Source: a virus. From it: a DNA stretch of 64,000 nt. Below, piece after piece: positions 11 to 53,400 of this stretch. The notes beneath the pieces are model-generated. The model was not told the DNA's origin and searched no databases. It was given only the letters and a program-made list of their open reading frames with translations. A program made the translations under genes and the position numbers. How positions within the stretch are numbered: the first letter of the stretch is position 1; every line of letters starts with the position of its first letter. The stretch spans positions 1 to 64,000 of IMG/VR virus record IMGVR_UViG_3300002835_000097; one strand, given 5' to 3'.

Positions 11-39
11 CGTAAAGTCTTATGCGACAAGTAGTTAGA
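11..39. repeat. Partial paired-palindrome element (second hairpin, left edge)
   Basis: The first bases match the second hairpin of the 82-nt paired element found four more times between 1.1 and 3.8 kb. The left arm CGTAAAGTCTT and loop ATGCGAC are intact, and the preceding bases resemble the end of the linker. The right arm is degenerate. The window therefore probably starts inside a fifth copy. Confidence 0.6.
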
Positions 40-1077: not shown

Positions 1078-1105
1078 ATTATACACATAATATCGGCCAA
1101 TGCAA
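1078..1105 (-). promoter_or_regulatory. Sigma-70-like promoter, possibly for a leaderless mRNA
   Basis: TTGCAT (1100-1105) and TATAAT (1078-1083) are separated by 16 nt on the - strand. The expected start of transcription is at or next to the ATG at 1071. Confidence 0.5.
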
Positions 1106-1145
1106 GTGGAGATATGAATCTTTTTCCTTACAATGCTGCAAGTTT

Positions 1146-1227
1146 CGCAACTCGTTGACGGATAAGAGTTTACGTCAAACGCGGGCGGCGGGCCTCGTCT
1201 CAAAGTCTTATGCGGCAAGGCTTTAGG
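1146..1227. repeat. 82-nt paired-palindrome element, copy 1
   Basis: Two 29-nt imperfect hairpins (1146-1174 and 1199-1227) are joined by a 24-nt GC-rich linker. The register matches the other three complete copies exactly, with 53 nt from hairpin start to hairpin start. It lies directly after the 3' end of the gene at 1228-1560 and upstream of the promoter at 1078-1105. Confidence 0.75.
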
Positions 1228-1560
1228 TCAACCCCTCCAACCGAAGGGTGAAACTTCCTCGCCCGATGCCATAATGGCAGCATACTGGTCGGCCAACGCT
1301 GCCTTACGCTCAGCCGAACCGGGCTTGCCAACGGGTACAATCATGGTATCCTCTCCCCCATTGTAGCGAGAGTCAACCTTTTCCGCCTTAGCCTTACTAC
1401 CCTTGCGGAGAGCCTTGCGATTGAACTTGTGAATCTTTTCACTGTGAATCGGGCCATACAATCCATCGGCAAGGGACGGCTGATGCCGAGTGGCCATACC
1501 AACAAAGCACATGCGAACCTGACGCTTGGCATCTTCGATAATCTTGAACTTGGTAGCCAT
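1228..1560 (-). CDS. Small basic protein of unknown function
   Basis: The 110-residue protein is Lys/Arg-rich, especially at about residues 48-68 (RKALRKGSKAKAEK), suggesting nucleic-acid or ribosome contact; no family is recognised. The start is well supported by GAGG 9 nt before the ATG and a strong promoter immediately upstream. Its TGA stop abuts the paired-palindrome element, whose conserved TTGAC flank supplies the stop codon. It is the second gene of a two-gene - strand unit. GC content is visibly higher than in the structural genes, as in its neighbours. Confidence 0.7.
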   Translation of the reverse strand: MATKFKIIEDAKRQVRMCFVGMATRHQPSLADGLYGPIHSEKIHKFNRKALRKGSKAKAEKVDSRYNGGEDTMIVPVGKPGSAERKAALADQYAAIMASGEEVSPFGWRG

Positions 1561-1587
1561 TTTCTTTTTCCTCTTGGTGATGAACGT

Positions 1588-1616
1588 ATTTTACAGAAAC
1601 TTTTTTGTCTTGTCAA
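1588..1616 (-). promoter_or_regulatory. Strong sigma-70 promoter (class B)
   Basis: On the - strand TTGACA (1611-1616) and TAAAAT (1588-1593) have an exact 17-nt spacer that contains an A-tract and GTTTCTG. The same spacer motif occurs in the promoter at 2257-2284 and, more loosely, at 2539-2567. It drives the gene starting at 1560. Confidence 0.8.
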
Positions 1617-1631
1617 CCCCTCTAGTGGGGG

Positions 1632-1847
1632 TCATGAGACGCCCATCCAAGAGGCTTTTTCCATACAGAAGTTATAGAACATATCGTTCAGCATTTCTTC
1701 GTAGTTGCTTTCCGTGAGTCTACGCCGATCATTCGTCGCCTCGCACTCAGCAAACAGTTTACCGTCTGCCGTATACAGTAGCACCACATTGTACGTTTCG
1801 CTACCCCAAATCTGACGCAAAGCATTTTTGATTTCGTTGGATATCAT
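1632..1847 (-). CDS. Small protein of unknown function
   Basis: The 71-residue acidic protein has a central stretch reading as a beta-hairpin (YNVVLLYTADGKLFAE) and helical ends. It belongs to no family I recognise. An AGAGGAAAC-type ribosome-binding site precedes the ATG, and a TTGATC-16-TATAAT promoter lies just upstream. It is the first gene of the unit it shares with the basic protein gene. Size, composition and arrangement match typical phage early genes; the role is unknown. Confidence 0.65.
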   Translation of the reverse strand: MISNEIKNALRQIWGSETYNVVLLYTADGKLFAECEATNDRRRLTESNYEEMLNDMFYNFCMEKASWMGVS

Positions 1848-1874
1848 TTTGTTTCCTCTTTCTCTTATATCGTC

Positions 1875-1902
1875 ATTATACAGGGTATTTCTTAGAGATC
1901 AA
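1875..1902 (-). promoter_or_regulatory. Sigma-70-like promoter (class A)
   Basis: TTGATC (1897-1902) and TATAAT (1875-1880) have a 16-nt spacer on the - strand. The bases after the -10 box read GACGATATAAGAG, nearly the same as after the -10 boxes at 2753 and 3582. That defines a promoter class found at the head of each unit. Confidence 0.7.
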
Positions 1903-1933
1903 GCAAAAAGTTTCCTTAAAAGATCGCAAGGTT

Positions 1934-2015
1934 CGTAAGTCGTTATGCGACAAGACTTTGCGAAAAACCGAGCCGCCACCGCTCGACGTAAAGTCTTGCG
2001 GCTATTGAGTTTACG
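1934..2015. repeat. 82-nt paired-palindrome element, copy 2
   Basis: Hairpins lie at 1934-1962 and 1987-2015. The first is close to ideal, with AAGTCGTT against AAGACTTT-type arms around a 7-nt loop. The right arm of hairpin 1 can also pair with the left arm of hairpin 2. On the - strand the linker can form CGAGC/GCTCG followed by five T, like a weak terminator. The TAA stop of the gene at 2011-2226 lies inside the outer arm. Confidence 0.8.
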
Positions 2016-2226
2016 TTGCGTGAATGAATACCTTTTCGCTCGTGGTCTTATTTGTGATCGTCACAATCCAGTTACGACCACTACCATCCTCACGCATGAT
2101 GCCATTCACAAGGCCAGCATAAACCCTACCCTTCGGATCGATCACACTAGTATACTTACCAGCGATCATGGACGAGAAGATAGTATTGAGGCTGTTCTGT
2201 CGATTGGCGTAGGCGGTTCCGAACAT
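2011..2226 (-). CDS. Small protein of unknown function
   Basis: The 71-residue basic protein has a probable beta-rich C-terminal half (NWIVTITNKTTSEKVFIHAT). No family is recognised. The start is supported by AAGG 9 nt before the ATG and by a TTGACA-16-TAAAAT promoter. Its TAA stop is part of the paired-palindrome element that follows, so the gene and element are tightly joined. It is the last of three genes in its unit. Confidence 0.65.
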   Translation of the reverse strand: MFGTAYANRQNSLNTIFSSMIAGKYTSVIDPKGRVYAGLVNGIMREDGSGRNWIVTITNKTTSEKVFIHAT

Positions 2227-2256
2227 TTTCTTTTTCCTTGTGGTGATGATGAAGTT

Positions 2257-2284
2257 ATTTTACAGAAACTTTTTTGCTTGTCAA
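2257..2284 (-). promoter_or_regulatory. Strong sigma-70 promoter (class B)
   Basis: TTGACA (2279-2284) and TAAAAT (2257-2262) have a 16-nt spacer on the - strand. The spacer shares AAAAAAGTTTCTG with the promoter at 1588-1616, and GAGGGG also precedes both -35 boxes. Confidence 0.8.
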
Positions 2285-2290
2285 TCCCCT

Positions 2291-2512
2291 CTATCGTAGG
2301 GTAATCAAGCCATTGAAGTGCGAGAAGGTAAGAGTAAGAGTCTTGCCAGGATACTTCTGGTCGATATACGCTTGAGCGGTACTCTTGCGATTATCGGTAG
2401 CGGCAACGTGTTGCACTACCATACCATTCTCATCCGTAACCTTCCAAACTTTCTTTTCCACAATCCTAGGAAGGGTGCCGATGAAGTCGTTGATATGAGT
2501 TGCTTGTTCCAT
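2291..2512 (-). CDS. Small protein of unknown function
   Basis: The 73-residue protein has a probable alpha/beta fold. A short N-terminal helix is followed by a strand region (KVWKVTDENGMVV), a helix (TAQAYIDQKY) and a terminal strand. No known family is apparent. An AAGAAAGAGAGAAAG-like purine tract precedes the ATG, and a TTGACG-17-TAGAAT promoter lies upstream. It is the middle gene of a three-gene unit. Confidence 0.65.
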   Translation of the reverse strand: MEQATHINDFIGTLPRIVEKKVWKVTDENGMVVQHVAATDNRKSTAQAYIDQKYPGKTLTLTFSHFNGLITLR

Positions 2513-2538
2513 CTTCTTTCTCTCTTTCTTGTGATTCT

Positions 2539-2567
2539 ATTCTATCAAAACTTTTTCGTATCGTCAA
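2539..2567 (-). promoter_or_regulatory. Sigma-70-like promoter (class B)
   Basis: TTGACG (2562-2567) and TAGAAT (2539-2544) are separated by 17 nt on the - strand. The spacer has the same A-tract plus GTTT as the other class B promoters. It overlaps the end of the gene upstream by only a few bases. Confidence 0.65.
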
Positions 2568-2572
2568 CCCCC

Positions 2573-2719
2573 TCAAATGGCGAAGGTGTTCATAAACCTT
2601 TCGGCCTCATATGAACTCTTGAACGTAGCAAGCAGTTGACGGTGATATCCATTCGGATACTTCTTTTCCCGATAAACCTTATACTTACCCTTCACAACGA
2701 TCAGAACCAGATTTTCCAT
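2573..2719 (-). CDS. 48-residue basic protein of unknown function
   Basis: A short reading frame runs from an ATG at 2719 to a TGA at 2573. The product starts MENLVLIVVKGKYKVYREKK and ends RFMNTFAI; it is basic, with a strand-like start and a helical end. Evidence that it is real: a purine-rich ribosome-binding region and a TTGACT-16-TATAAT promoter at a proper distance upstream, the same base composition as its neighbours, and exact filling of the gap between the two flanking promoters. Function unknown. Confidence 0.65.
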   Translation of the reverse strand: MENLVLIVVKGKYKVYREKKYPNGYHRQLLATFKSSYEAERFMNTFAI

Positions 2720-2752
2720 TTCTTTCTCTCTTTCCTTTTCTCTTATATCGAC

Positions 2753-2780
2753 ATTATACCATCCATACTTTAGAAGTCAA
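2753..2780 (-). promoter_or_regulatory. Sigma-70-like promoter (class A)
   Basis: TTGACT (2775-2780) and TATAAT (2753-2758) have a 16-nt spacer on the - strand. It is followed by GTCGATATAAGAG, the extension shared by class A promoters. It heads the unit of three genes ending at 2011. Confidence 0.75.
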
Positions 2781-2846
2781 CAAAAATCTTTCCTTACAAT
2801 ATCGTAAGATTTCTTACAGCAAATATCATGCCAAAACTCTGCTTAT

Positions 2847-2928
2847 CTTAAGTTGTTATGCTGTAAGAGTTTGCGTCAAGCCCCTGCGCCCCGCCTCGCC
2901 GTAAAGTGTTATGTAGCAAGGATTTACG
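2847..2928. repeat. 82-nt paired-palindrome element, copy 3
   Basis: Hairpins lie at 2847-2875 and 2900-2928 with a C-rich 24-nt linker. The second pairs CGTAAA with TTTACG at its outer ends. It lies between the 3' end of the gene at 2954-3274 and the class A promoter at 2753-2780. Confidence 0.75.
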
Positions 2929-2953
2929 TCGAGTGCATACCTCTAGTGGGGGG

Positions 2954-3274
2954 TTAGCCCACCTTGAACATGAAAACCCTAGAAATCCCACATGACGATA
3001 CCCCCCAACTGGGGCAATCATACAGCCAATCGGGCAACCCCTTACAATGGGGAGGATGATAGCCGTCAACGTGTAGCGTATTATTATCATCCGGCAACCG
3101 CTGTACGATCAGGCCATGAGATTCTAGTTTGCAAATCATTTCAGAAACAGACATTATTTTTTCCTTGGGTTGCATATCATATCCAAGATTATACTTTTTT
3201 CGCAAGTATCTTACCTTATCCTTAGTAGCATTTGCGTCCATTCCAATCCGATTCAATCTTGCAAAACTATTCAT
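2954..3274 (-). CDS. Small basic protein of unknown function
   Basis: The 106-residue protein has a basic helical N-terminal half (ATKDKVRYLRKKYNLGYD) and a Cys/His/Trp-containing second half (residues about 73-97). The latter could bind a metal, but the spacing fits no finger I know. No family is assigned. AAGG precedes the ATG at good distance. No clear -35 box is seen directly upstream; a TAGAAT at 3294-3299 could be a -10 box, or the gene may be read from the promoter at 3582-3609 together with the gene before it. It ends 26 nt before a paired-palindrome element. Confidence 0.65.
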   Translation of the reverse strand: MNSFARLNRIGMDANATKDKVRYLRKKYNLGYDMQPKEKIMSVSEMICKLESHGLIVQRLPDDNNTLHVDGYHPPHCKGLPDWLYDCPSWGVSSCGISRVFMFKVG

Positions 3275-3321
3275 TTTCTTTCCTTGTGAGAGTATTCTAT
3301 ATAATCTCCTTACTGGGGAGA

Positions 3322-3540
3322 TTAGATTCCCTCTCCATCGTCAAGACCGGGAATGTAATCGATATCAGCATGAGAAACATAGTCGGCGTTGAGCCGACCA
3401 ACGTTGCCTTCCTCGTCGCGTACAGTAAGGGTATTATCGTCGTTCACCGACTCGACTCGATAAACCGGATAGTTCTCACAATCAAGCCCATATTCTTCAT
3501 CACTCTCAACCCAATCGCCAACTGAAAAACTGCCGATCAT
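3322..3540 (-). CDS. Small acidic SH3-like (KOW/Tudor-type) protein
   Basis: The 72-residue protein opens with SVGDWVESDEEYGLDCENYP and continues with a VYRVESVNDDNTLTVRDEEG stretch. This strand-turn pattern (xGDxVxS...YxVxxVxxDxxLxVxDxxG) is typical of small SH3-like barrels. It is acidic and ends DDGEGI. Such domains bind proteins or nucleic acids; the partner is unknown. An AAAAGGAAAAG ribosome-binding site precedes the ATG. It is the first gene of its unit, and its promoter has an A-tract upstream. Confidence 0.7.
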   Translation of the reverse strand: MIGSFSVGDWVESDEEYGLDCENYPVYRVESVNDDNTLTVRDEEGNVGRLNADYVSHADIDYIPGLDDGEGI

Positions 3541-3581
3541 TTTCTTTTCCTTTTCTCTTCTGTCTTACTTCTTATATCGAC

Positions 3582-3609
3582 ATTATACAGACATATCTTT
3601 AGGTTGCAA
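3582..3609 (-). promoter_or_regulatory. Sigma-70-like promoter (class A) with A-tract UP region
   Basis: TTGCAA (3604-3609) and TATAAT (3582-3587) have a 16-nt spacer on the - strand and the class A extension GTCGATATAAGAA. Upstream, at 3617-3640, the - strand carries long A runs that look like an UP element for the polymerase alpha subunits. Confidence 0.7.
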
Positions 3610-3640
3610 GCGAAATCTTTTATTTTTTTTATTTTTTTTA

Positions 3641-4081
3641 GAGAATATATTATTCTTTATTCTTTGGCATAGCATTTGCTAGGGTCATTTAACGTAAGTC
3701 CTTATCCCATAAGAGTTTAGGGCAACTTTTGCGGCCATAACTCGTCGTAAAGTCTTACGCCACAACACTTTAGGGCAAGAGGGGGTTTTTTCGTTTTATA
3801 TCAAGGGGTTTAGAAAATCGCCATACCTTGCGGGTGGTCCAAAAACAATAAGGACCATCATAACAAATTGGCCAGTTTATTAGCCATTTTCCCCTATAAT
3901 AATCTTTTATAAATCATCTTTGTGCCGATACAAGTATCAATAATGAGCCCAGTAGCATCGATTCTAAAAAAAATGGCCGGGTCATCATATCAATTGGCCA
4001 GTTTCCACCAACTAACAATCAACCCTGCACCATATTTTATTCATCTACAGATTACTTACTATATATTAGCCGAATTCCCCC
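3641..4081. other. Largely non-coding region between early units
   Basis: About 440 bases without a convincing gene. It contains the fourth paired-palindrome element, a G5T6 run near 3782 and a direct repeat AATTGGCCAGTTT at 3866-3878 and 3992-4004 (125-126 nt apart), each copy preceded by a similar CATCATA(A/T)CA sequence. A 64-codon + strand frame here lacks a ribosome-binding site and protein-like composition. Base composition drops to the AT-rich level of the structural genes. Confidence 0.5.
3693..3774. repeat. 82-nt paired-palindrome element, copy 4
   Basis: Hairpins lie at 3693-3721 and 3746-3774 with the same 53-nt register as the other copies. Its linker is less GC-rich. It sits 84 nt upstream of the -35 box of the class A promoter at 3582-3609. 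Confidence 0.75.
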
Positions 4082-4526: not shown

Positions 4527-4772
4527 TTAAGAAAGCACACTCTGCTCAACCTGAATATTCGTTGATGCTGTAGTAGCAGGCTTTGTCTTTCGTGGACGTC
4601 CTCTGCTCTTCTTTAGTGATAACTTTCTTCGCTGTCTACGAACCATGGCAGTACTAATGTTTTGTCCAGTTATTTTGCTTAGTGATGCTGCTAAACTCTC
4701 ATCACATAATACATTATGATTATTTTGAATATAGTCCAATTCTGAGGGTGCCCACTTTTTATAATTAGCCAT
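4527..4772 (-). CDS. Small DNA-binding protein with HTH-like core and AT-hook
   Basis: The 81-residue protein has a helical N-terminal part (WAPSELDYIQNNHNVLCDES followed by LAASLSKITGQ) like Myb/SANT-type helix-turn-helix domains. A basic stretch (VRRQRRKLSLKK) and a classical AT-hook core RGRPRK at 57-62 follow. It probably binds AT-rich DNA as a regulator or nucleoid-type protein. The N-terminal pattern resembles the start of the protein encoded at 5621-6436. It is transcribed divergently from the sigma-factor operon and so is well placed to control it. Confidence 0.75.
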   Translation of the reverse strand: MANYKKWAPSELDYIQNNHNVLCDESLAASLSKITGQNISTAMVRRQRRKLSLKKSRGRPRKTKPATTASTNIQVEQSVLS

Positions 4773-5032: not shown

Positions 5033-5660
5033 ATTGCCCAATGGCGTAGAAACAGAAGAATTTTTATTAGTTTTGGATAATATTACTAAAAGATTAGCTA
5101 ATAAATTCAGATTCGCCTATCATAGCATAGAAGATATGAAGCAACAAGCTGCTATTTTTGCTTTGGAAGGATTAAAAAATTATGACAAGAAAAGGCCCCT
5201 GGAAAACTTTCTTTGGACCCATGTTCGTAATAGACTATTTAATTACAAACGTAATAACTATCAAAGGCCCGACAAACCTTGTTTAACTTGTCCATTTTTT
5301 GATAAAGGTTGTAAAGTGAGCATTAATCAGTGTGAACAATATAAAAATAAAAATGATTGTGAACTATATGCAGCATGGGCAAAAAGAAATGAGGCCAAAA
5401 AGAATATTATTCAACCAGGTTATATTGAGAATAACACCTCATTAGGCCCATCTCTTCCTGCACCACTATTAGAAAACCAAGAGTTAATTAAATTTTTAGA
5501 TTCTAACATACAAAGTGATTATAGAGAAAGTTATTTAAAACTAAAACATGGAACTAAAATTAATAAGACCGAGCTTAAAAAACTCAAAGCTCATATTCAA
5601 AAAATAATGGAGGAAAACAATTGGAAAATAGAAACATTCCAAGAAAACGAGGACAACTAA
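5004..5660 (+). CDS. Sigma-70-region-2-like phage transcription factor with Cys cluster
   Basis: The 218-residue protein carries a segment typical of sigma region 2 at about residues 30-85: a helix with SIEDMKQQAAIFALEGLKNY, then DKKRPLENFLWTHVRNRLFN. The pattern resembles T4 gp55-type late sigma factors. After it comes a Cys cluster (C93, C96, C103, C110, C119) that could bind zinc. No clear region 4 for the -35 box is visible, which fits a factor reading a single promoter box. It is likely the protein that directs polymerase to the GGTGTAT(A/T) box before the structural genes; that link is inference. It overlaps the genes on both sides. Confidence 0.7.
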   Translation: MTKKQQNKDKLPNGVETEEFLLVLDNITKRLANKFRFAYHSIEDMKQQAAIFALEGLKNYDKKRPLENFLWTHVRNRLFNYKRNNYQRPDKPCLTCPFFDKGCKVSINQCEQYKNKNDCELYAAWAKRNEAKKNIIQPGYIENNTSLGPSLPAPLLENQELIKFLDSNIQSDYRESYLKLKHGTKINKTELKKLKAHIQKIMEENNWKIETFQENEDN

Positions 5661-6436
5661 GTTTAGAAGAAGAAAAATACATTCGTGATAACTATAGTTC
5701 AATACCATTACAGCAAATTGCTGATGCTCTAAACAGAAACTTAGCTCCAGTAGAAAGATACGTTAATGAGAATCAATTATCTGTGGTTAATAATTCACAA
5801 GATGATCAGATACTAAAACAAAAATTACACAGTAAAACCTTTTGGTTAGAAATACTAAGACAATTTGATAAAGAGAGCGGTGAACTAGAATATTTTGAAA
5901 GTACCTGGGTTAATTTAGTCAAACAATTTCGTGAAGATGTTTTACCCGCCGAAGAACTTCAGATTAAACAATTTATAACTATTGATATTCTGATTAATCG
6001 AAGTATGAAAGAACGAAAGCGTCATATTGCTGAAACTGAAAAATTACAAAAGCAAGTTGACAAAGAATATGAAAAAAGTGAAGATCAAAGAGACATACCG
6101 AAATTGGCTAATTTAGAAACTCAATTAAGTTTTGCTCGTAACAGTATTGCAAACTATACTAACGAATATACTAAACTTTTAAATGAACAACAAAAGATTA
6201 GCAAAGACCTTAAAGCTACTCGTGAACAGCGTATCAAAAGAATAGAAGATGGTAAAAGCAGTTGGACAGGATTAATACGCATGTTGGAAGACGAAGAAAC
6301 ACGAGAAAAAGAAGGACGTCAAATGGAGATTATCAGTTTAGCTACCGAAAAATACAAACAGCAATTAGCTGGCTATCATTCTTTTCAGGATAATACTGTA
6401 GATAAACCTCTTTTAACACCAGATACTGTGGAGTAA
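5621..6436 (+). CDS. HTH plus coiled-coil protein, probable small terminase subunit
   Basis: The 271-residue protein has an N-terminal helix-turn-helix (LSLEEEKYIRDNYSSIPLQQ, then IADALNRNLAPVERYV) and a long charged helical part (about residues 125-225) likely to form coiled coils. The order DNA-binding domain then oligomerising helices, upstream of the large terminase, is that of small terminase subunits that recognise phage DNA for packaging. The start codon is TTG, chosen because a perfect GGAGG lies 7 nt upstream. It overlaps the sigma gene by 40 nt. A structural or regulatory role is the alternative. Confidence 0.55.
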   Translation: MENRNIPRKRGQLSLEEEKYIRDNYSSIPLQQIADALNRNLAPVERYVNENQLSVVNNSQDDQILKQKLHSKTFWLEILRQFDKESGELEYFESTWVNLVKQFREDVLPAEELQIKQFITIDILINRSMKERKRHIAETEKLQKQVDKEYEKSEDQRDIPKLANLETQLSFARNSIANYTNEYTKLLNEQQKISKDLKATREQRIKRIEDGKSSWTGLIRMLEDEETREKEGRQMEIISLATEKYKQQLAGYHSFQDNTVDKPLLTPDTVE

Positions 6437-6438
6437 AT

Positions 6439-7434
6439 ATGAAAACAGCAATTGTTACGGGAATAACAGGTCAAGATGGTAGTTATTTAGCAGAAAATTT
6501 ATTAGACAAAGATTACAAAGTTATTGGATTATACAGAAGATCCAGTACCAATACCTTCAATAGAATCAAACATATAGATAATCCTAATTTTATTTTGCAA
6601 GAATATGACATTACTGATCCTAGCGGATGCATATCTTTAATATCATATATCCAACCTGATGAATTTTATAATTTGGCGGCCCAAAGTCATGTGGCCACAA
6701 GTTTCAAACAACCAACTACAACATTTGAAATTAATGCTATTGGTGTTATTAATGTTTTGGAGGCTATTCGACTATTTTCAAAACATACTAAGTTTTATCA
6801 GGCTAGTACTAGCGAAATGTTTGGGCGAAATTACTCAGTTGATAGTGATGGTAACAAATATCAAAATGAAGAAACCTCCTTATTGCCACAAAGTCCTTAT
6901 GCTGTAGCTAAGTTAGCTAGTCATCGAATGGTTCAAATATACAGAGAGGCTTATAACTTATATTGTTGTAGTGGAATACTATTTAATCATGAAAGTCCAC
7001 GACGCGGCGAAAACTTTGTAACGCGTAAGATTACCAGATATATTGGTCGATTAGTTAATAACAAACTACAGCCAGATGAGAAATTGCGATTAGGAAACAT
7101 AAAAGCAGTTAGAGACTGGGGACATGCTAAAGACTATGTTGAAGCTATGAGACTAATGCTAAATAACAATATAGCCGCAAATGATTTTGTTATTAGCACC
7201 GGACAATGCTATAGTGTTGAGCAGTTTTTGCAAATAGCTTTTGGTCTAATAAATAAAGATTGGAATAATTATGTTGTTATAGATCCTGAATTCTACAGAC
7301 CAGCCGAAGTAGATTATCTGAGAGGAAACTCTGATAAAGCTAAAAAGTTACTAGGTTGGGAGCCTAAAATACCATTCGAAGATTTAGTCAAAGATATGGT
7401 AAATCAAGATATTGAGATAACAAAGAATGATTAG
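6439..7434 (+). CDS. gmd: GDP-mannose 4,6-dehydratase
   Basis: The 331-residue protein is an extended short-chain dehydrogenase. It has a Rossmann GxxGxxG at G8-G11-G14 (TGITGQDGSYL), the family STSEMFG motif at 123-129, catalytic Y154xxxK158 in SPYAVAK, and the conserved ESPRRGENFVTRKI and LGNIKAVRDWGHAKDY segments. The enzyme converts GDP-D-mannose to GDP-4-keto-6-deoxymannose, the precursor of GDP-fucose, GDP-rhamnose and GDP-perosamine. Phage copies are thought to alter host surface sugars or supply sugars for modification. Its position between packaging genes is unusual. GGAG precedes the ATG; it overlaps the HNH gene by 8 nt. Confidence 0.93.
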   Translation: MKTAIVTGITGQDGSYLAENLLDKDYKVIGLYRRSSTNTFNRIKHIDNPNFILQEYDITDPSGCISLISYIQPDEFYNLAAQSHVATSFKQPTTTFEINAIGVINVLEAIRLFSKHTKFYQASTSEMFGRNYSVDSDGNKYQNEETSLLPQSPYAVAKLASHRMVQIYREAYNLYCCSGILFNHESPRRGENFVTRKITRYIGRLVNNKLQPDEKLRLGNIKAVRDWGHAKDYVEAMRLMLNNNIAANDFVISTGQCYSVEQFLQIAFGLINKDWNNYVVIDPEFYRPAEVDYLRGNSDKAKKLLGWEPKIPFEDLVKDMVNQDIEITKND

Positions 7435-7699
7435 AAACTTTGATGATCCTGAGTATAAAAAATGGAGAAATAAAATTTATGCAAGGGATAATCATACTTG
7501 TCAATGGCCAGGATGTTCTAATAAGAAAAAATTGAATGCTCACCATATTCGTCGTTGGGCTGATTTTCCAGGACTACGGTTCGCTGTTGATAATGGAATA
7601 ACATTGTGTAAAGATCATCATAAAGCAATTACTGGTGTAGAAACTTATTATGAGGCTGTTTTTTATAACATAGTAAAACAGAAAAATAATGACAAATAA
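7427..7699 (+). CDS. HNH endonuclease
   Basis: The 90-residue protein is almost entirely an HNH core: CQWPGC at 25-30, NAHHI with H39 and H40, the central Asn in DNGITLC (N56), and C61xxHH ending the zinc site. HNH proteins next to large terminases are needed for packaging and end formation in HK97-like phages, so a role with the terminase is plausible. It overlaps gmd at its start and the ERCC4 nuclease gene at its end. Confidence 0.88.
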   Translation: MIRNFDDPEYKKWRNKIYARDNHTCQWPGCSNKKKLNAHHIRRWADFPGLRFAVDNGITLCKDHHKAITGVETYYEAVFYNIVKQKNNDK

Positions 7700-41493: not shown

Positions 41494-44400
41494 ATGGCAA
41501 CTTTTAATCTAACAGCACAGTTGAATCTTAAAGGTCCAACAAACGTTAAGCAAATAGCTGCTCAAATTAAAAAAGATCTTGGCGCTCTTAATGCAAATGT
41601 ACAATTTAAACTTGATCCGGCAGCATCAAAAAATGTTGCAGCATTATCGTCTTCTTTAAAAGTTTTGAATGCTAATTTTGCCTCAACTGTCAAATCAGCC
41701 AATGCTGCCACATCAGCAATAAAGGCTTTTGGTAATAGCGTAAATTCTGTTAAAATTAACAATGTCCCTCAACAAATTAATCAAACTTCATCAGCAATTG
41801 CTAAATTAAATAAAGTATCCTCATCAACATCTGGAGGATTGCAAAATGCCGCAACAGAGATGCAGGAATTCGGCAAGCAAGCTGGTTTAGCAGTTAGAAG
41901 ATTCGTTGCATTTAGTGCTGTTACAAGTGTTATATATGGAGTAACAAATAGTATAAATAATGGTATACAGGCTTTTATTGATTATGATAAAGAGCTTGTA
42001 AAATTACAACAGGTTACTGGAGAATCTGCTGCCGGATTATCCAAACTACAATCTCAAATTAGTAATTTAGCTGTAGAATTTGGTGTTAGTTCTAAAGAGC
42101 TAACTCAAGTAGCATCAACATTAGCTCAGGCTGGTTTAAGTGCCAGAGAAACTGAGAAAGCTTTAAAAGCCTTAGCACTTAGTAGTTTAGCTCCGTCATT
42201 TGATAATATGAATGAGACTGTGGAAGGTAGTATTGCTATAATGAGACAGTTTGGTATTAGTGCTGCTGATTTGGAGGCATCATTAGGTGCGGTTAATACC
42301 GTGGCAGCAAGGTTCGCAGTAGAATCTAGTGACATCATTACCGCCGTGCAAAGAACAGGTAGCGTATTCGCTACTGCGAGTAAAGGGGTAAGCGAAGGAA
42401 AAGACGCTTTAAATGAATTTATTTCGGTATTTACCAGTGTTAGAGCAACTACCCGTGAAAGCGCTGAAACTATTGCTACTGGATTACGAACAATATTTAC
42501 TCGTATCCAAAGAGGAACAACGATAGACGCCCTAAAAGAGTTTGGTGTTAACTTAACAGATGCTGAGGGTAAGTTCGTTGGAGCGTATAAGGCTGTCGAA
42601 TTGTTAAGTAAAGGATTAGGTAAAATAGACCCTAGAAGTTTGGACTTTTCAAGAATAGTTGAAGAACTTGGTGGATTTAGACAAATTGGTAAAGTTATTC
42701 CATTAATTCAACAATTTAGTGTGGCTCAACAGGCGTTAAAAGTTGCTCAACAAGGACAAGGTTCGCTAGCTAAAGATGCAGCAACAGCACAATTAAGTTT
42801 AGCTAATCAAATAAGTAAAGTTCGTGAAGAATTTTTCTCACTATTTCGTGAAATAGGTCAATCCAAAGGATTTCAAAGTTTAATCAGAGGAGCGTTGTCT
42901 CTAACTAGTGGTTTGATAAAAGTAGCAGATGCTGTTAAAGGAATTCTACCAGCATTAGCAGTACTTGCAGCATTTAAGGGATTTAAAGCATTAACAGAAT
43001 TTACTACAGGATTTGCCACAGGAGTTAAAAGAGGACCAGATGGTAAAGCTAATGGCGGAGTTATAAGAAAATTCGCACGAGGTGGTGTTGTTCCTGGTAC
43101 TGGTAGTGGAGATACTGTACCAGCAATGTTAGAGCCAGGAGAATTTGTTATACGTAAAAAAGCTGTTGAAACTATTGGTACTGATAGTCTTCATAGTATG
43201 AATAAGTATGGAAGTGGTGGAAGTATACGAGCAGGAAAATCAAATAGAAGAAAAAGATTTGGGGGTGGAGGTAAACTATATGACGATATTGATGTTCAAG
43301 AATATTCTAAGTCTAACAAGCAGTATGCTGGTAGGCTCAAAGCTTATGATGCAGATAGTATAAATTTATTGGTTGATCCAACACAAACACTAGTTAATAA
43401 ACGTTTTAAAAAACTAACTGGCGATTTAATTTATCCTAGTGAAAAAGGTAAATTTAAAGTCACATCCAGACTTGAAGGAATAGATGCTTTTGAAATTAAA
43501 GCATCAAAAAAAGAAAGAGAAGAGTATGCTAGTCAAGGAGGAAAAGGTCCGGCATATGCTAGTAATAGAGAGAAAGGCAAAAGAGCCAAAGATATAACTA
43601 TAGATTTTATAAGTGGACTTGGTAAAGAAAAATTAGCTAAAATTTTTATCGACGCTAATAAAGTAGATTACTATGGCAGACCAATGGCGGAAATTGGTGC
43701 TCTTAATAAAAAATTAGTAGGAGAGAATGTTGCAAAATATAGTGGAACTAAAAAAGGTCAAGACATTATTCAAGCAGATAAACTAGCAAATAGACTAGAG
43801 ATAATGAAGAAAAATTCAGGATTCGGCAATACTAATAAGTCATCATGGGATAGGGTTATTAAAGATGATTATATGTTTAACTATATGCCAGCAGGATCTA
43901 AGGATAGGTTTAACAGTTCAGGGAATATAATACAAGACGACTCCCGGCCATTAAAAACTATCTCTGATATTGGTTTTATTAAGAAAATGACAGAGACTAA
44001 AGGATTGGCTAAGTTCATGGTTGGAGGAAAAGTAGAAAGAAAAATTGGAGTAGTTGATACGGACGTACTAAGAGATGAGGCTAATGCGGCGATAGTTAGG
44101 CCAGCAATGGAAAAGCTTGGAATAACTGATGTTAGTGACTATACAACAAAACTTGGAGAATTGGCAGGCAATGCTAGAAAAAGTGGATCGCTATCTAGGT
44201 TTAGAGCTATTGCTGGAGCTGCTGGAAGTGGAAAAAGCAGTTTAGCAACCGGAAAGGGAGCTAATGATGATGCTACTTTAAGAAAAACAATTCGCTCTCA
44301 AATATTAACGCCTGAAGATATAGACAAAGTTAATGAAGTTATAGTATTAACATCGACAGCTAGTCAGACTAAATTAGATGCTTATTTAAAAGATGTTGAT

Positions 44401-47400
44401 AGAGCATATGTATTAAGCTCTAATAGCAGAGAGGAACAAGATAGAGTTAGGTCAAATAGAGAGAGCAGAGACATTACAGGAGAAGGATTGTATGGTCGTA
44501 AACCAGGAACCACAAGAGCAGCTGATATTGATTTTGGTCTGGAAGAAACCATATTACGAGATGAACTTGGCAAAAGAGCCACAGTATTAGGAAGAAAAAA
44601 AGATAGTTTCGGTTTAAGACGTAAAAGAGAAAGCGAACTACCAGAAATAGTTCAGGCTGGTGGATTTTATATGGGTGGTTTTGCCCCACCAACAAGAGGC
44701 CATAGAGGAGCTTTAGATACTTTATTAGAAAACATGTTAGCAAAGAACCCAAACTCTTCTTTAGAAGATATTCTTGTTAGTGTTGCTCCTGACCTTCCAA
44801 TGATTGTTGATAAAGAAGGCATAGACCACGCTGCACGATATGGTATTTTCCCATCAGACATAAGAACCTTATTTAGCCAAATGAATTTTGGAAATGCTAT
44901 GATTAGCACTCAAAGCCAGACGGGTGGTGGTTTACCAAAATTTATGGAAGTTACTGATGCTGGAGATAGAAGAAAATTCGCCAGATTAAAAGGAGCCATG
45001 GCAATAACTTCTGGTAAAGACGATAAAACATTGGGCAAATACCAAAGAGCAGGAATAGACGTTACAGATATTCCTAGAATAGAAGATATTAGTGCTACTG
45101 CAGTTAGAGACGCATTATTTAATGGTGACGATAAAACACTTACTAGTTTAATGAATCCTGATATAGCATCAATATTAATGGGCAATAGAGCACAATTACG
45201 TAATCGTAGCACTATGGTTCCTATGCTCATCGAAGAAATACAAAAGTTTGTTGATCAAGATAAAGTACGATCCAATGCTGAGGTTACAGAAATATTATCA
45301 AATGCTCCTGGTGGTCCATATGGTAATGTTAGTGCTGATCTAAAGAAAAATTATCCAGAAATAGCTGAGCAAGTTAAGCAGATAAGAGACAAAAGAGATA
45401 GAGTATCTAAAGGAGCATTCGGCTATAGAGCATTTAATATAATAAGCGCCCTATCTGCCAAATATCCAGAAACTTATGGGTTAGACCCATCAAGAAAATC
45501 CGCCGTATCTGCGCAACCATCAGACATAACCAGAGAGGCCATAGCAGCACAAATTTCAGAACAGATGGCTGGTGAGTTTGGTGGAGTTCCAACAGCTATG
45601 CCTTCTGGACTAGAAGAGGCAATACTAAAAAATGTAGAAAAAGCCACCCAGGTCAAAAAGTCTTCTGGAATATTACCAACACAAGGATCAGAGATTCTAA
45701 AAAGATTTGGAACTCAAAGATTACCAAATGATCCAAGTTTTGGCCCATTCTCAGGAAAAACAGTAAGAGATACAGCCGAAGGAGGAAAATTAAAATACTG
45801 GAATTCTGCTTTTAGACCAGAAACAAAAGAAGATAAGCTCGCTTACTATATTGCAACAAGAGACTATCTAATAGACAAATTTAATGAATCACAAGGAATT
45901 CAAAAGGCTACAGCTCTAGAAGATACAACTAATGCTGTGTTATCTTCCAAACAATTAGGATTAGTTGGATTAAATCCGCTAGGATATACTGGATTATTGG
46001 GTCCAGAGACTTGGAATCTTGGAGTCGATCCGTCTGGCCAAGAAAGATCAATAGACGCTTCAATAGTACAAAGAGGACTACCAACAGAATTCCAAAACGT
46101 TATTGATTATCTTAGTGGACAAACAGCAGAAATAGTACAAGGAGCATCAAAGCTTCTTGGTATTACTCCTAAAGAATTAACTAAAAAACAAAGAGAAACA
46201 TTAGGACAAGGAAATATTGAGGGTGCTTTACTAGAACAAATTTTTGGATCAGCAGATGCCACAATATTAGACGATGCATTAAGAACAAGACCAATTGACT
46301 TTCCAATGGGTATCGGACCTAAAGCAGCAAAAATATTTGGTATCGATCCTGATATTCCAACAGAAGTTAAAAGAACAATAGATAGTAATAGTAGAGGTAA
46401 AGCTGTTGAAGAATTTCAAAAATATTTTAGACAACAATACGGCATTCCTGATCCAGAAAAAGTAACAGCTTTTGCTGACGGCGGAGAAGTATATACTCCA
46501 CAACAACTAGTCTCATTAGCCAAATACAGAACAGGACCATTTCCTGGTGGTGGAACTGATAGCGAATTTATAAATAGATATTTAGAAGATAATGATTCTT
46601 TCATGGAATATCTTAAAACTTTCCATGCTGATCCTCCAAAGGCGTATGATGCCACAAAGAATGCTGCAAAAGATTTATTGGAAATGTTTACTAGCCAAGA
46701 ATCAATGAGTGGCTCAAAGCGTTCTGGTAAATTATATTCCACTGTTGCTGGTGGTAAATTAAAAACCATTTTAACTCAAATTAATAATCCTTTAAACTCT
46801 AATAAAGATATTTCTGATGCTATTGGTAAAAACTTTAATTTAAATGGCTCATTATTATCAACTAGTGAATCCCCGGATACAGCTAGTGTATTTCAGCCAG
46901 AAAATGGTTCTAGTGCAATGTTGAGTATCATTAGAAATAAAAATATTCCATCTATTGATGTTGATAAGGCAATATTTGATACCTCCACAGAAGAAGATAT
47001 TATAAAAGCATTATCAAAATATATAGACCCTGTCTCTGGAAAAAGCGGAGCAGATTTTCTAAGCAGAAGTCGATCAGCAACACGAATAGAAAAAGAATTC
47101 ATTCTCCCACAAACTTCAAAATTTAGAATAGATGATATTGATAGAATATTTAGTAAAGATCAAGAAGATAAATTATTAGGTGGAAATATTCGTCATATAG
47201 AAGGAATGAAAGTTCAGCAGTTTAAAGATGGAGGAATGGCATTTGGTAAAGAAAATGAATTTGAAAAAATAAGACAAAAAATATTAAATCAATATCCAGA
47301 TATTAATTTTAGAATTTCCAGACGAAAGAATGGTTTTGGATACAATATATTAGGCGGACTAAAACAAGAAAGTAGTAACATTGGTAATTATGCAGAATTT

Positions 47401-50400
47401 AAGCAAGCTGGTAATCTTTCTAAAATACAAGAAGTTGCCGATAATATGGCATCCTCTCTGCTATATGAATATGGTCCAAATATAGATCCGTCTCTTCTAA
47501 AGAAGATGCAGAATAAAAGAAAATTTGCAAATGGTGGGTCTGCGCAGGATACTGTACCAGCATTATTAACTCCTGGTGAATTTGTTGTTAATAAAAAAGC
47601 AGCAGAAAAAATAGGATATGGCAAGTTAGAAAAATTAAATAAAGCAGATAAAATACAAGGATACAATAAAGGAGGAATTGTAGGAGGAGTACAAAGATTT
47701 GCTTTAGGTGGAGGTGTAGATGGCTTTCTTTCTGGATTACAAAGCATAGCAAGTAATTTAGGAAGAACACAAAATATTACTAATAATCGCCCAAATTCAA
47801 TAGATACTAGTACAATAGCTGTAGACCCATCTATTCTGCAAGATACAAAAGCATTTGTGGACACTCTTTATGATGCCGGAGACGGCATGAAGTATTTAAA
47901 TCGTTTATTAAATGAAAATAAACAATTATCTATACAAGCAGTATTAGAAGCTGGTAATAAAGATCTAGAAAGATTAAAAATTAGTGGAGCATCTATTGAT
48001 AAAATTATAGAAGCTGAAAAGGCATTGTCTAATATTAGAAATAAAGGACTTATTGATGTTACTAATCGTCAATTTTTAGAGTCTGGATTTAAAGAAAGTT
48101 CAGTTGGTAAAAAATTAGGATCAGGAGCTACGCAACAAAAAATATTATCTTTAGCAGAAAAAGAAGAGCGACGATTAATAGATAAAAGAAAAAAGGCTAT
48201 AGAAGCTGATATAGTATCATCATCCAAACAACCAATATCTCCATCAGACTTAGCTGATCAGGTCGCCCAAGCTATATCTTCTGAATTAAATGATATTAAA
48301 ACGCAAGCATTTTCTAGAGCTACAGCAGCGGCTACAGGAACAAAAACTTCTACTGGCATAAAAGGGAATATAACAGAAAGTGAATTAAAAAATCTAAATA
48401 TAACTGGAAATGATATTCAAAAATATATTTCTGATTCTATGAGAGATAGAAAAACTCTCAGACAAATGGATCAGCAGTTAATAGCTATGAGAATGGAAGA
48501 GTATAAGAATGCTGGAACTGTTAGAGGTATTAGCGTTGCTTCTGCAGAGGAAGCTAAAAAATTAGCACAGGAAGAAGTTAGCAAACGAAGAGAAGCTATA
48601 AATGATCTGGCAAAAATGAGAGGAGAACGAGGTGTTGGAGCTGCTGGATTAATGGATACTAGAAATAGTCCTATTAATCGAGCATTTAGAGAAAGATACT
48701 TTACTGGAGATCTAGGAAAAAGTATGCAGAGAGGATTGGGCGACATTGGATTAGCGGCAGGATTAGTTGCTGGACAAGGAGACAACATAGCATCAGCATT
48801 ATTTGATACTAAAACCGATAAAGGCAAAATACAAGCGGCAGATACAGGCGCAAGAATCGATAAAGCAGCAACAACACTGTCTGTTGGTCTAACAACATCA
48901 GCACAATTAGCTGCTATAAATCCTATGTTAGGAGCTGCTGCTGCTATAGGCACAGCACTGTATGCTGGCGCTGATGCTGTATATGATTTCTCAGGCACTG
49001 CCAAAAAAGCAGCTCAAGAAATGGCAAGAGCTTTATTAAATGATAAATTATCTGCTGCTAGTGATAATCTATCAAATGCTTTGGAAAAATTAAGCAGAGA
49101 TGCTAATAACGTTGAACTTAGAGCAAAAACAGCATCAACCATTAAAAGCTTAACAGATACTGCCCTGGAAAGCACAGCAGATACAGGAATAACAGGAAAG
49201 AATAAAGCAGAGACGGAGCGTAATTGGTCAGATTTTGGCAGAGGAATATTGTTGGCCATTGGAGAAATTGGAGTTGGTATGAATCCATTCTACCAAGACA
49301 TGGACCCTGTAACGCTTGCAAAATCCAAACAAGGCTCTTATGGCATGGAAGAAGCAAGAGTTGATGCTCAAAAAGAAGCAGAAAATTTTCAAAAAATAGC
49401 TAATGCTGGATATACCGATCTAGAAAGGCTATATGCAAAAGGATTCACTAATGATCAAATTATGGATCCTACTAATGAAGCTGGAAATATAGTTAGAGAA
49501 TCTATAAAAGGCATGATTCTAGCTGATTCTGAAAAACGAGCTTTATATATGGCTGCCGGACCACAAGGTAAAGAAGCTATTGCTGGTACAGCAGCGCAAC
49601 AAGCATTTTTAGCTAATGATGAATTAGCAAAAGCTTCTCAAGAAGCTGCAAAATTAGCAAGAGCTATGGAAATTGCTGATAAAGCAGGACGAAGATTAGC
49701 AGCAAGTTTTGATAAAATAGCAGATATAGTAAATGAATCTGTTAATAGAATATCATTTGAGTCTGATGCTAGAGTAGAAGCGGCAAACCAATATGCATCA
49801 TCATTACGTGGAGAGTCCAGAGGTTCTGGTCCAAAACTAAGAGAAAGAAATATTTTAGAAAATCCCAATGCATATTCTGAAGCAGAATTTACTGCAGCAC
49901 TACAAAGTGCCACAGCAGGATTAAGTGACGGACTTAGAAAACAACTGATTGGCGGTGCTCAATTACAACAAAACATACCAAAAAATATAACAAAAAGCAT
50001 AGCAACTGTTTTAGACAAGAGCGCCGGCTCAGGAGTAGATGAACTTAAAAAAGCAGCAGTTGATACTGCTAAAAATGAAATAGAAAATAATGCTAATTTA
50101 TCTAGACAACAAAAAGATGAATTAAAACAAATAGCTACGGCCAGGATAGAAACTATAGCTAAAAAAGCTAAAGATAACAATGCCGATAATACTACGCAAG
50201 TATCAGAATTTAGAAAAGAACTAGAAGAAGGTACTAGTGTTTTAGGTGATTTTGGTAAAAAATTATTAGATTCTATAAAAGGTCTATCATCATTCAAAGA
50301 AGGAGCATTAGATAAATTTGCTAAGGGCTTGAATGAAGCTAGCAAAGCAGCTAAAGAATCTCAAAACTATTTTAGAAGATCAAGAGAAATCTCTAACGAA

Positions 50401-53400
50401 GGCAATATGAACCTAAGAGAAGTCTTGAGTGGATACGGTGAAACATATGATGAACAATTTAATAGAATTATGGGTGATGTTGGTGGTTTAGCAGGAGGTG
50501 AAACAACTGTTCAGGGAATTAAAAATAGACAAATAATGCTTGCTGAGCAAAGAGATACTCTACAGAATCAACAAAATACCCTTACAGATAAAGACGCTTT
50601 GCGTAACAATGTTGAACAGCTTAATAAATTAGATGATCAATTAAGAGATAATAGAGAAGCATTAGATATGCTTGCTAATAGTACAGAATTAGTAGATAAA
50701 GCTTTCAACAACTTGCAAAATACTGCAGAATTACAGAATAATCGACAAAATTTTGTTAATCAATTATTAACTAATACGCCAGAAGAAGCAGATAAACTTA
50801 ATCAAAGTTTTATTAGATTACAACGAAATCTTTCTGGAGGACTCAATAGTGCATATAATCAAAGAGACGCTAGAAAAGCATTTAATGAAACATTATTTAA
50901 GACCGGAAATGTAAGAGAAGCAACTCGCGCCGGAAATACTGTTCTTGCTAATCAAAGAAAAGAAACACTATCATTGATGCAGGATCCCGGATTCAGAGCT
51001 GCTCAAGAATTACAGATAAGAAATCAATATGCTCAGAACCGAGGAAGACCAGGAGTAGATGCTGATCAAGCAGTAGCAGAATATTTTCAAAAACAGCAAT
51101 TACAAGTAACCAAACAAATGGCGATAGAAAGTGGAATGATAAATAATCCACTTGTTCAACAGTCATTGGCTGTCCTAGAGGATCGCAAAGCAGATCCTGC
51201 TATGCAACAGGCTGCTGAAAGATATTTAGAAGCTGTTGGATTAAGAGCCGATGCTACAAAAGCACAAGGAGAACTGGCTTTATTAGAATCACAATCCATA
51301 CTAAAAAATTCTAATGATAATTTACGTATTAGTATTGATGATTTAAGAGCAAGCATCGAAGGAAATCTGAATAATGCTAATATAGGTATGGACGCTGCTG
51401 GTAACAGAATAGTTAATCCTGGGGTGGCTGTTCCTGCTCCTGCTGCGGCCAGATCATCTGGAGGATTAATATATGCTAGTAGTGGAAAGCTTATTGATTT
51501 TAAGCCTAAAGGTACCGACACTGTTCCTGCCATGTTAAGTCCTGGCGAATTTGTTATCAATTCTAAGTCTACACAAAAACATTTACCATTATTGAAAGCT
51601 ATTAATAGTGGAAATTATAGTAAGGGTGGAGTGGTTTATTTACAAAAGGGTGGTAAAGCAGGAACTAATATTGACGAAGATATAGATCTAAATAAAGATG
51701 GAACAATTACAGATGAAGAACGACAGATTTATCAACGTCGAAAAGAATTATATCTAACAAGATCATTTGGACAAATGGATTATAGACAAGCATATTTTAC
51801 TAGACCATTCGGATATAGTAAAGGAGGGCCAGTAAATTATTTAGCCAATGGTGGCGAAGTACAAAAAAGAAAAGAAGAAAGAATAGATGCTCAAAAAGAA
51901 TCATGGATGATGTCAGAAGCAGCCGGAAGAAGACCTGATGAGGTAGTTTCTAGAACATCATCTAGTTGGGCAGAATCTCAGGTAGGTAGTAATAAATGGC
52001 AAAGTATGACAGAAGAACAAAGACAATCAGAAACTAAAAAATATGAACCAGAATTTCAAAACAGATGGGATAATTATAATAATAGACAGAATGACGCACA
52101 ACTCAGAAGTGCTAACGATGCAGGATATGGCAGTATAAAGGAGGATCCTAACTCTGGTATTGTTGGGGTTAATTTTTATAATGAAGAAAAGAAAAGAGCT
52201 AAAGAAAGATTTGAAAAAGCTAGTGCGGCTGAAGCTGAAACGGAAGCATCAAATAATCAAATGACTCAAAGCTCTATGGAGCAACCAGCTCCAGTAGCAG
52301 TTCCTCTACCCGATATGACAAAAATACCTTGGGGCAGAGGAGCGGCAATAAAGATTGGACCAACACAAGAAACTATCAATGAGAGAAAAAAAATTAAATC
52401 TGAAGAGTCACGAAGACGATCATTATGGCTTAAAGGAAGCAAAGGAATAAGCTCAGAAGAAGAAACAGAATATGCAACTTTAAAATCTAATCAAATAAAA
52501 AGAGAGGTAGGCCCGTATACTGTAGAAAAAGATCGTAATATTTCTTCTTTAGTAAATAGTGCCTATCGTAAAGGTGCTCAGTCTAATGAGATAACATCAG
52601 AAGAAAGATCAGCCCTAAAAGAGTTAGGCTCTGATCCTAGAAATAGAGGAAGTTTACGAGCCCTATCATTTAGTGCTGCGTTGCCTCCAATAACTAGTAA
52701 CGGAGGAAAACCCGACCCTATTGATCCAGCAACTGTCGCTAGAATAAATCAGAGTGCAAGACCTGACATAGCCGATCCTGCAGTCTCTTCAGGTGTTCAA
52801 ACAGGAAATCCTTCAGAAGGAATGGTTAATCGTACAGCTAATAATAGAGCTTATGAGGCTAATCAGGCTAAAAAGAGAAAAATGGCTGGATTAGCATTAG
52901 GATTGTCAACAGAGGCTGATCAAGAAACAGCAGACCTTTTGGAACAAATACTTTTTGGTGGACCTATAGAGAGACCTATAGAGAATAATCCAGCAAGAGA
53001 AAAAAGACAAGCAGCTTTAACTACAAATATTATAAACCAAGCCTTAAATAAAAAAACACCAGATTATTCCATAGCCACCCCAACATCTGGTGATCAAACC
53101 ACTAAAACTGAACGACTAACCAAAGAATTTATTGGATCTTCAGCAAGCAGACGAGCATTTAATGCAGTTGCTAATAATGGCGGAACATTAGCAGAAGCCA
53201 ATGCAGCAGCTAAAAATGCCATACAATCACAGGCTGAAAGATCAAAAAGCATAGTGGAAAAAAGAAAAGACGAAGGTAAAAAAGTAATAGACTATTATGA
53301 ACAAAGACTAAATGAAGCCAGAGCAGACAACGACGGAGATGGACGACCAGACTTTTCAAACGAAGAAATAGACAAGAGAAAAAGAGAAAGAGATAGCGCA

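What the first reader, a model, noticed from the sequence alone, without database searches (positions are those of the whole stretch)
1146..3774. Family of exact 82-nt paired-palindrome elements that bound transcription units
Four elements (1146-1227, 1934-2015, 2847-2928, 3693-3774) share a fixed plan: 29-nt palindrome, 24-nt linker usually rich in GC, 29-nt palindrome. Hairpin starts are exactly 53 nt apart in all four, and a fifth copy enters at the left edge. Two copies touch the stop codon of the preceding - strand gene or supply it, and every copy precedes a promoter. Arms of the two hairpins can pair within or between hairpins. The fixed length argues for a structural or protein-binding constraint. 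It resembles BIME/REP elements, but I know of no described phage family of this kind.
Basis: seen in the sequence. Interest (0 to 1): 0.85.

Follow-up and report, generated by a model that had tools for sequence, protein, structure and literature searches.

The report
Swappable paired-palindrome sites upstream of phage promoters
A family of uncultured giant phages places the same 82-base double palindrome in front of about 15-20 gene clusters, lined up with each promoter on the DNA helix, and relatives have replaced every copy with an unrelated double palindrome, so it looks like a phage-wide control switch rather than an RNA hairpin or a mobile cassette.

Summary
In detail: four 82-nt elements (29+24+29, half-sites 53 nt apart) plus the right half of a fifth; none elsewhere in the 88-kb record. 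Pattern scans find over 500 such elements in IMG/VR contigs, almost all at exactly 53 nt, in one 15-21-element array per jumbo-phage genome, at the same locus in five phages compared. Bacterial genomes hold almost none. The structural reading fails: compensatory base changes equal shuffles. A recombination-cassette reading, which I first favoured, also fails: gene order is colinear between phages and no tyrosine or serine recombinase was found. Two results point to a protein-bound upstream regulatory site. (1) The sigma70 -10 box lies in helical phase downstream of the element (40-41, 50-52, 61-63, 72-75 nt; period about 10.75 bp), replicated in new loci. (2) Relatives with homologous array genes carry an unrelated 44-nt element (CTGCCAAAATGGCAG-N14-CTGCCAAAATGGCAG) upstream of orthologous promoters; the types never co-occur (0/29, 0/49 records). 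Best explanation: multi-copy upstream sites for a trans-acting DNA-binding regulator, probably an activator. The protein, and whether phage- or host-encoded, is unknown. Similar palindrome pairs occur beside a Y1/RAYT transposase gene in a planctomycete-group genome, so host REP/BIME ancestry is possible.

The parts
11..39 (+). right half-site of a fifth type I element cut by the contig edge
   Evidence: PWM hit 23.8 bits; full element in G212:150284-150365
1146..1227 (+). type I paired-palindrome element 1 (half-sites 1146-1174 and 1199-1227); sense of the units is the - strand
   Evidence: score 92
1078..1106 (-). promoter downstream (in sense) of element 1: TATAAT at 1083-1078, -35-like TTGCAT region; -10 offset 62 nt
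1934..2015 (+). type I element 2 (half-sites 1934-1962, 1987-2015); supplies the stop codon of gene 2011-2226(-)
1875..1902 (-). promoter of gene 1632-1847(-), -10 offset 53 nt from element 2; orthologous promoters in L320 and L314 carry type II elements instead
2847..2928 (+). type I element 3 (half-sites 2847-2875, 2900-2928)
2753..2780 (-). promoter downstream of element 3 (TTGACT-16-TATAAT), -10 offset 88 nt
3693..3774 (+). type I element 4, first element of the array in the sense direction (half-sites 3693-3721, 3746-3774)
3582..3609 (-). promoter downstream of element 4 (TTGCAA-16-TATAAT), -10 offset 105 nt
2819..2833 (-). sigma54-like motif TGGCATGATATTTGC (GG-N10-GC), sense orientation, between element 3 and its promoter
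   Evidence: sequence read; motif statistics
3665..3679 (+). the same motif in antisense orientation (GCAAATGCTATGCCA on the - strand), between element 4 and its promoter
   Evidence: sequence read; motif statistics
4527..4772 (-). 81-aa conserved helix-turn-helix-like protein with a GRPRK AT-hook-like tail at the array border; one candidate regulator, unproven
   Evidence: alignment A2; weak Pfam hits only; present in type I and type II phages
5621..6436 (+). conserved array-border gene (query A3) used to find relatives

Best explanation
Each 82-nt element is a double-stranded DNA platform, upstream of a strong sigma70-type promoter, for a trans-acting sequence-specific DNA-binding protein. 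Shown: two 29-bp inverted-repeat sites per element, a fixed 53-bp spacing (5.05 helical turns at 10.5 bp), one orientation relative to transcription, helical phasing with the downstream -10 box, no base-pair covariation, restriction to one array of 15-21 transcription units per phage genome, and mutually exclusive replacement by an unrelated paired palindrome in relatives. Inferred: a dimer (or pair of dimers) binds each palindrome and contacts RNA polymerase from centres at about -67, -78 or -89, as class I activators or Fis at rRNA promoters do; the array is a single regulon of small, probably early genes; the protein and its site type change together. An activating role is my guess at about 60:40 over repression or looping. 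Whether the binder is phage- or host-encoded is open. The stop-codon contact follows from compact packing: the element edge (TTGACGTAA) carries in-frame stops.
For: Helical phasing of -10 boxes at 40-41, 50-52, 61-63 and 72-75 nt (172 non-redundant promoters; Rayleigh nR2 about 45 near a 10.75-bp period). It is replicated in new loci (47 promoters, peak nR2 11.5 against a jitter-null 99% of 7.8), together with UP-element-like A/T tracts in the promoter logo. No covariation. One array per genome at a conserved locus, zero copies elsewhere. Orientation 179 same against 16 opposite between neighbours. Type II swap in colinear homologous arrays, with an orthologous promoter alignment. Mutual exclusion 0/29 and 0/49. 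The inner-arm ACT subclass is all-or-none per genome. Last elements of arrays precede a promoter rather than closing a unit.
Against: No cognate regulator was found: no DNA-binding gene is present in all type I and absent from all type II genomes. Type II spacing (29 bp = 2.76 turns) is not an integral number of turns, and its promoter phasing is weak. Promoters are already near consensus, so an activator is not obviously needed. Promoters were called by consensus match, not mapped.
Confidence: 0.7

Rival explanations
1. Operators for a phage repressor (immunity or early-shutoff regulon, possibly a tyrosine-recombinase-fold repressor like MrpR of SPbeta): same DNA-binding platform, opposite sign.
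For: Multi-copy operators in front of many promoters in one phage are known (SPBRE/MrpR, PMC10516654; stoperators, PMC6550527). Site types that differ between relatives and track genomes mirror heteroimmune operators. At array ends extra palindromes lie at the promoter. The 11-7-11 arm plan of the half-sites is like a tyrosine-recombinase core site (inference).
Against: Most sites lie about 67-142 bp upstream of the predicted start, not over the promoter. No integrase found, so there is no sign of lysogeny. No repressor gene identified.
Confidence: 0.25
2. Integron-like recombination sites (attC-like) bounding mobile gene cassettes.
For: Gene-element-gene layout, stop codons at the element edge, two core-site-like repeats, higher GC of the array (0.40-0.44 against 0.33). 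attC clusters without an integrase are known in phages (PMC9892861).
Against: Array genes are colinear between phages (median Kendall tau 0.89). PF00589 is absent from all 49 virus records and PF00239 from 21. No GTTRRRY/RYYYAAC boxes at the ends. Sequence is conserved and length fixed, unlike attC. Breakpoints between related copies are diffuse. Phasing with promoters is unexplained.
Confidence: 0.04
3. RNA-level element (terminator, processing or 3'-end protecting hairpins).
For: Elements sit at gene ends; type II halves are perfect 6-bp hairpins; folding is below shuffles (z -1.8 and -4.0).
Against: Both strands fold equally. No covariation. Helical phasing with the promoter is irrelevant to RNA. 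Type II elements are not tied to stop codons. The elements themselves do not end in a T run.
Confidence: 0.06
4. Copies of host REP/BIME elements (RAYT-mobilised) that spread passively in the phage array.
For: Planctomycete-group genome G163 has similar palindrome pairs (about 60-nt spacing), one next to a Y1_Tnp gene; half-site-rich G062 also holds Y1_Tnp genes.
Against: No PF01797 in 21 phage records. Single orientation, fixed spacing, syntenic units and replacement by type II are not passive spread. May still be the evolutionary origin.
Confidence: 0.08

Closest known systems
SPBRE / MrpR of Bacillus prophage SPbeta (PMC10516654)
   Same: Repeated element in front of many phage promoters in one genome, bound by one phage master regulator.
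   Different: SPbeta is temperate with a known repressor of tyrosine-recombinase fold; here each element is two palindromes at fixed 53-bp spacing, helically phased, in one contiguous array; no binder known and no PF00589 hit.
Cluster A mycobacteriophage stoperators (PMC6550527, PMC9283540)
   Same: Many sites per genome, one orientation relative to transcription; consensus varies between relatives together with the repressor.
   Different: Stoperators are short asymmetric sites, mostly not promoter-associated, spread over the genome; these are 82- or 44-nt paired palindromes upstream of promoters in one region.
Cluster K ESAS (PMC3203893)
   Same: Imperfect inverted-repeat pairs upstream of a subset of phage genes; function unknown.
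   Different: 17-bp repeats with variable spacer next to start codons; no fixed spacing, no type swapping.
Class I activator / Fis sites of rRNA promoters (general knowledge)
   Same: Palindromic sites upstream of UP element and -35, active only in helical phase.
   Different: No protein identified; two rigidly spaced sites repeated at 15-21 promoters of a phage.
REP/BIME elements and RAYT REPtrons
   Same: Paired palindromes with a GC-rich spacer; similar pairs lie by a Y1_Tnp gene in a planctomycete-group genome.
   Different: No RAYT in the phages; single orientation, fixed plan, promoter-phased.
Integron attC / CALIN in phages (PMC9892861)
   Same: Array of small genes each ending at a repeated site with two core-like repeats.
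   Different: No attC boxes, colinear gene order, fixed sequence and length, no recombinase.

Membership tests
REP/BIME (RAYT-associated) | associated Y1/RAYT transposase in the genome carrying the repeats | tested here: not met
   PF01797 0 of 21 phage records; present only in the host-like genomes G163 and G062
REP/BIME (RAYT-associated) | dispersed extragenic palindromes, both orientations, variable spacing | tested here: not met
   one array, 179 same vs 16 opposite orientation, 53-nt spacing
Integron attC / CALIN | R'/R'' boxes GTTRRRY / RYYYAAC | tested here: not met
   read from the consensus of 207 unique elements; no dedicated attC model was run
Integron attC / CALIN | structure conserved over sequence (compensatory pairing) | tested here: not met
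   at shuffle level
Integron attC / CALIN | shuffled cassettes and an integrase | tested here: not met
   median tau 0.89; PF00589 0 of 49 virus records
Upstream activator-type promoter element | position relative to promoter restricted to one helical face | tested here: met
Upstream activator-type promoter element | a protein that binds the site and changes transcription | not testable with these tools
   no binder identified
Multi-site phage operator regulon (stoperator/SPBRE type) | many sites per genome with a genome-specific consensus | tested here: met
Multi-site phage operator regulon (stoperator/SPBRE type) | cognate repressor encoded by the phage | tested here: inconclusive
   presence/absence screen found none; an allelic or host protein is possible

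The most novel reading that the evidence does not exclude
A jumbo-phage family keeps a colinear regulon of about 15-20 small-gene operons under one trans-acting factor through rigid paired-palindrome upstream platforms. Whole genomes switch the platform type (82-nt type I to 44-nt type II) at orthologous promoters, with the sites perhaps domesticated from host REP/BIME repeats and read by a host or phage protein of a kind not yet described.
Probability: 0.35. Interest if true: 0.78.

Novelty: new variant of a known kind. Interest (0 to 1): 0.62.

Why it matters
It would give the first regulatory code for a large, uncultured jumbo-phage family that probably infects Planctomycetes, let its regulon be read from sequence, and offer a natural experiment in how a whole set of 15-20 binding sites is replaced at once when a regulator changes specificity.

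Tried and rejected
Integron/attC cassette model: favoured early from layout and an apparent covariation block. Rejected when that block proved to be two lineage classes, gene order proved colinear, and PF00589/PF00239 were absent. RNA hairpin/terminator: rejected. Breakpoint mapping between homologous units gave diffuse positions. Rfam and tRNA scans of the window found nothing. The presence/absence screen for a type-specific regulator found none. Search for host copies: the exact pair pattern gave 26 stretches in 257 Gb, most of them chance or short phage-like contigs in MAGs. Model R1 found convincing copies in only one or two of 149 planctomycete-group genomes, apart from one phage-like contig. 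No type II pairs there.

Full report
What is there. The window is the first 64 kb of an 88,057-bp virus record. Four 82-nt elements lie at 1146, 1934, 2847 and 3693 with half-sites exactly 53 nt apart, and the right half of a fifth enters at 11-39. Nothing else in the 88 kb scores above shuffles. A near-identical longer phage, G212, holds the rest of the array: at least 17 elements between 136748 and 154100, among them all but the second of the window's copies at the same spacing. The window therefore shows only the end of the array.

How widespread. A full-element model over the fetched loci found 515 elements, while shuffled sequence never reached even -26 bits against a threshold of 22. Neighbouring elements share orientation 179 to 16. 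In 257 Gb of bacterial and archaeal genomes the pair pattern gave only 26 stretches; those with several high-scoring copies are short, low-GC MAG contigs that look like phage. The four other phages first examined (G013, G014, G021, G042) each carry a single array of 15-21 elements over 17-21 kb, GC 0.40-0.44 against about 0.33 elsewhere. All five belong to one family with syntenic terminase, portal and capsid genes (capsid 86-91% identical to the window's), without a close cultured relative. The array lies next to the same conserved genes. A search with one border gene found 379 relatives; in 36 of 50 loci with at least 5 kb upstream, elements are present and always on the same side (263 upstream, 0 downstream). 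In a further six the array lies farther away.

What it is not. Compensatory changes are absent: on 30 diverse copies both the between-half and within-half folds pair exactly as often as column shuffles. An early mutual-information signal between inner arms came from two sequence classes that are all-or-none per genome. Sense and antisense fold equally. The cassette idea fails because array genes are colinear between phages at about 60% aa identity (median Kendall tau 0.89), PF00589 is absent from all 49 virus records and PF00239 from 21.

What it does. Genes point away from the border genes and end at elements. Downstream of each element, in the sense of transcription, lies a promoter with TTGACA-like and TATAAT boxes preceded by UP-element-like A/T tracts. 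The -10 box falls at 40-41, 50-52, 61-63 or 72-75 nt after the element, a 10-11-bp rhythm (172 non-redundant promoters; Rayleigh nR2 about 45 at 10.75 bp). The rhythm recurs in loci fetched later (47 promoters, peak 11.5 against a jitter-null 99% of 7.8). In the window two copies fit the short classes (53, 62 nt) and two have longer spacing (88, 105 nt). If TATAAT starts at -12, the nearer palindrome is centred near -67, -78 or -89. A protein bound to the DNA is the simplest explanation for such phasing.

The swap. Some family members lack the 82-nt element. In G207 (224 kb), L314 and L312 the homologous array genes are punctuated by an unrelated element, CTGCCAAAATGGCAG-N14-CTGCCAAAATGGCAG, with GC-rich linker and half-sites exactly 29 nt apart; 206 such pairs were found in type II loci. 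The promoter of the window gene 1632-1847 aligns with its orthologues in L320 and L314 from the -35 region onward while the elements differ completely. The two types never occur in the same record (0 of 29, 0 of 49). Replacement of every copy at once is what a change of cognate binding protein would leave behind.

What remains open. No gene is shared by all type I and missing from all type II genomes apart from one 97-aa array protein whose domains were not examined, so the binder is either an allelic phage protein or a host protein. Host evidence: a DUF1559 pilin-like gene in G014 (PF07596), a family expanded in Planctomycetes (general knowledge), and a subtilase in G013 with an N-terminus I associate with Planctomycetes. 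In a planctomycete-group genome, G163, similar palindrome pairs with about 60-nt spacing occur, one beside a Y1/RAYT transposase gene. The phage sites may therefore descend from host REP/BIME repeats, but the phages carry no such transposase. Activator versus repressor cannot be decided from sequence; upstream position and UP elements favour activation, operator-type swapping and the closest known phage systems (MrpR/SPBRE, stoperators) favour repression.

Noticed in passing
L320, L314, L312 and 75 IMG/VR stretches: A second, unrelated paired palindrome (15+14+15 nt, CTGCCAAAATGGCAG twice) replaces the 82-nt element in homologous arrays; its 3-nt centre is AAA on the sense strand in about 80% of copies.
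   Followed up: yes
window 2819-2833 and 3665-3679; arrays of G013, G014, G021, G042 and type II phages: A sigma54-like motif TTTGGCAYGATATTTGC (GG-N10-GC) occurs in both orientations between element and promoter, 29 times inside arrays and once outside in five genomes.
   Followed up: partly
G014:21488, G042:74270, G021:137112, G013:77257: The last element of each array is followed by a promoter (TAGACA-N17-TACAAT or TATACT) with an extra single palindrome just downstream or overlapping it, e.g. CGTAAGTGGTGTGCTGGTAAGGACTTACG.
   Followed up: no
L506 (G163:C550) 6683-6774 and 6928-7668: Planctomycete-group chromosome: palindrome pair with about 60-nt spacing directly next to a Y1_Tnp (RAYT-like) gene.
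   Followed up: partly
L143 1600-1681 (BPJU01000007.1, Pirellulaceae KatS3mg110): A good 82-nt type I element (score 52) in a bacterial chromosome, about 100 nt beyond the end of a CRISPR-like repeat array.
   Followed up: no
L508 6906-7004 (G166): Three related palindromic half-sites in the dnaA-dnaN intergenic region.
   Followed up: no
G014 43352-44461; G013 95415-96626: DUF1559 pilin-like gene and a subtilase at the array border, pointing to planctomycete hosts.
   Followed up: partly
L110 array gene of 147 aa, family in 15 phage arrays: Weak match to the ribosomal protein L7/L12 C-terminal domain (PF00542, E 9e-6).
   Followed up: no
window 41494-56346: A single 4,950-aa open reading frame in the structural region, with relatives in the other phages.
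   Followed up: no
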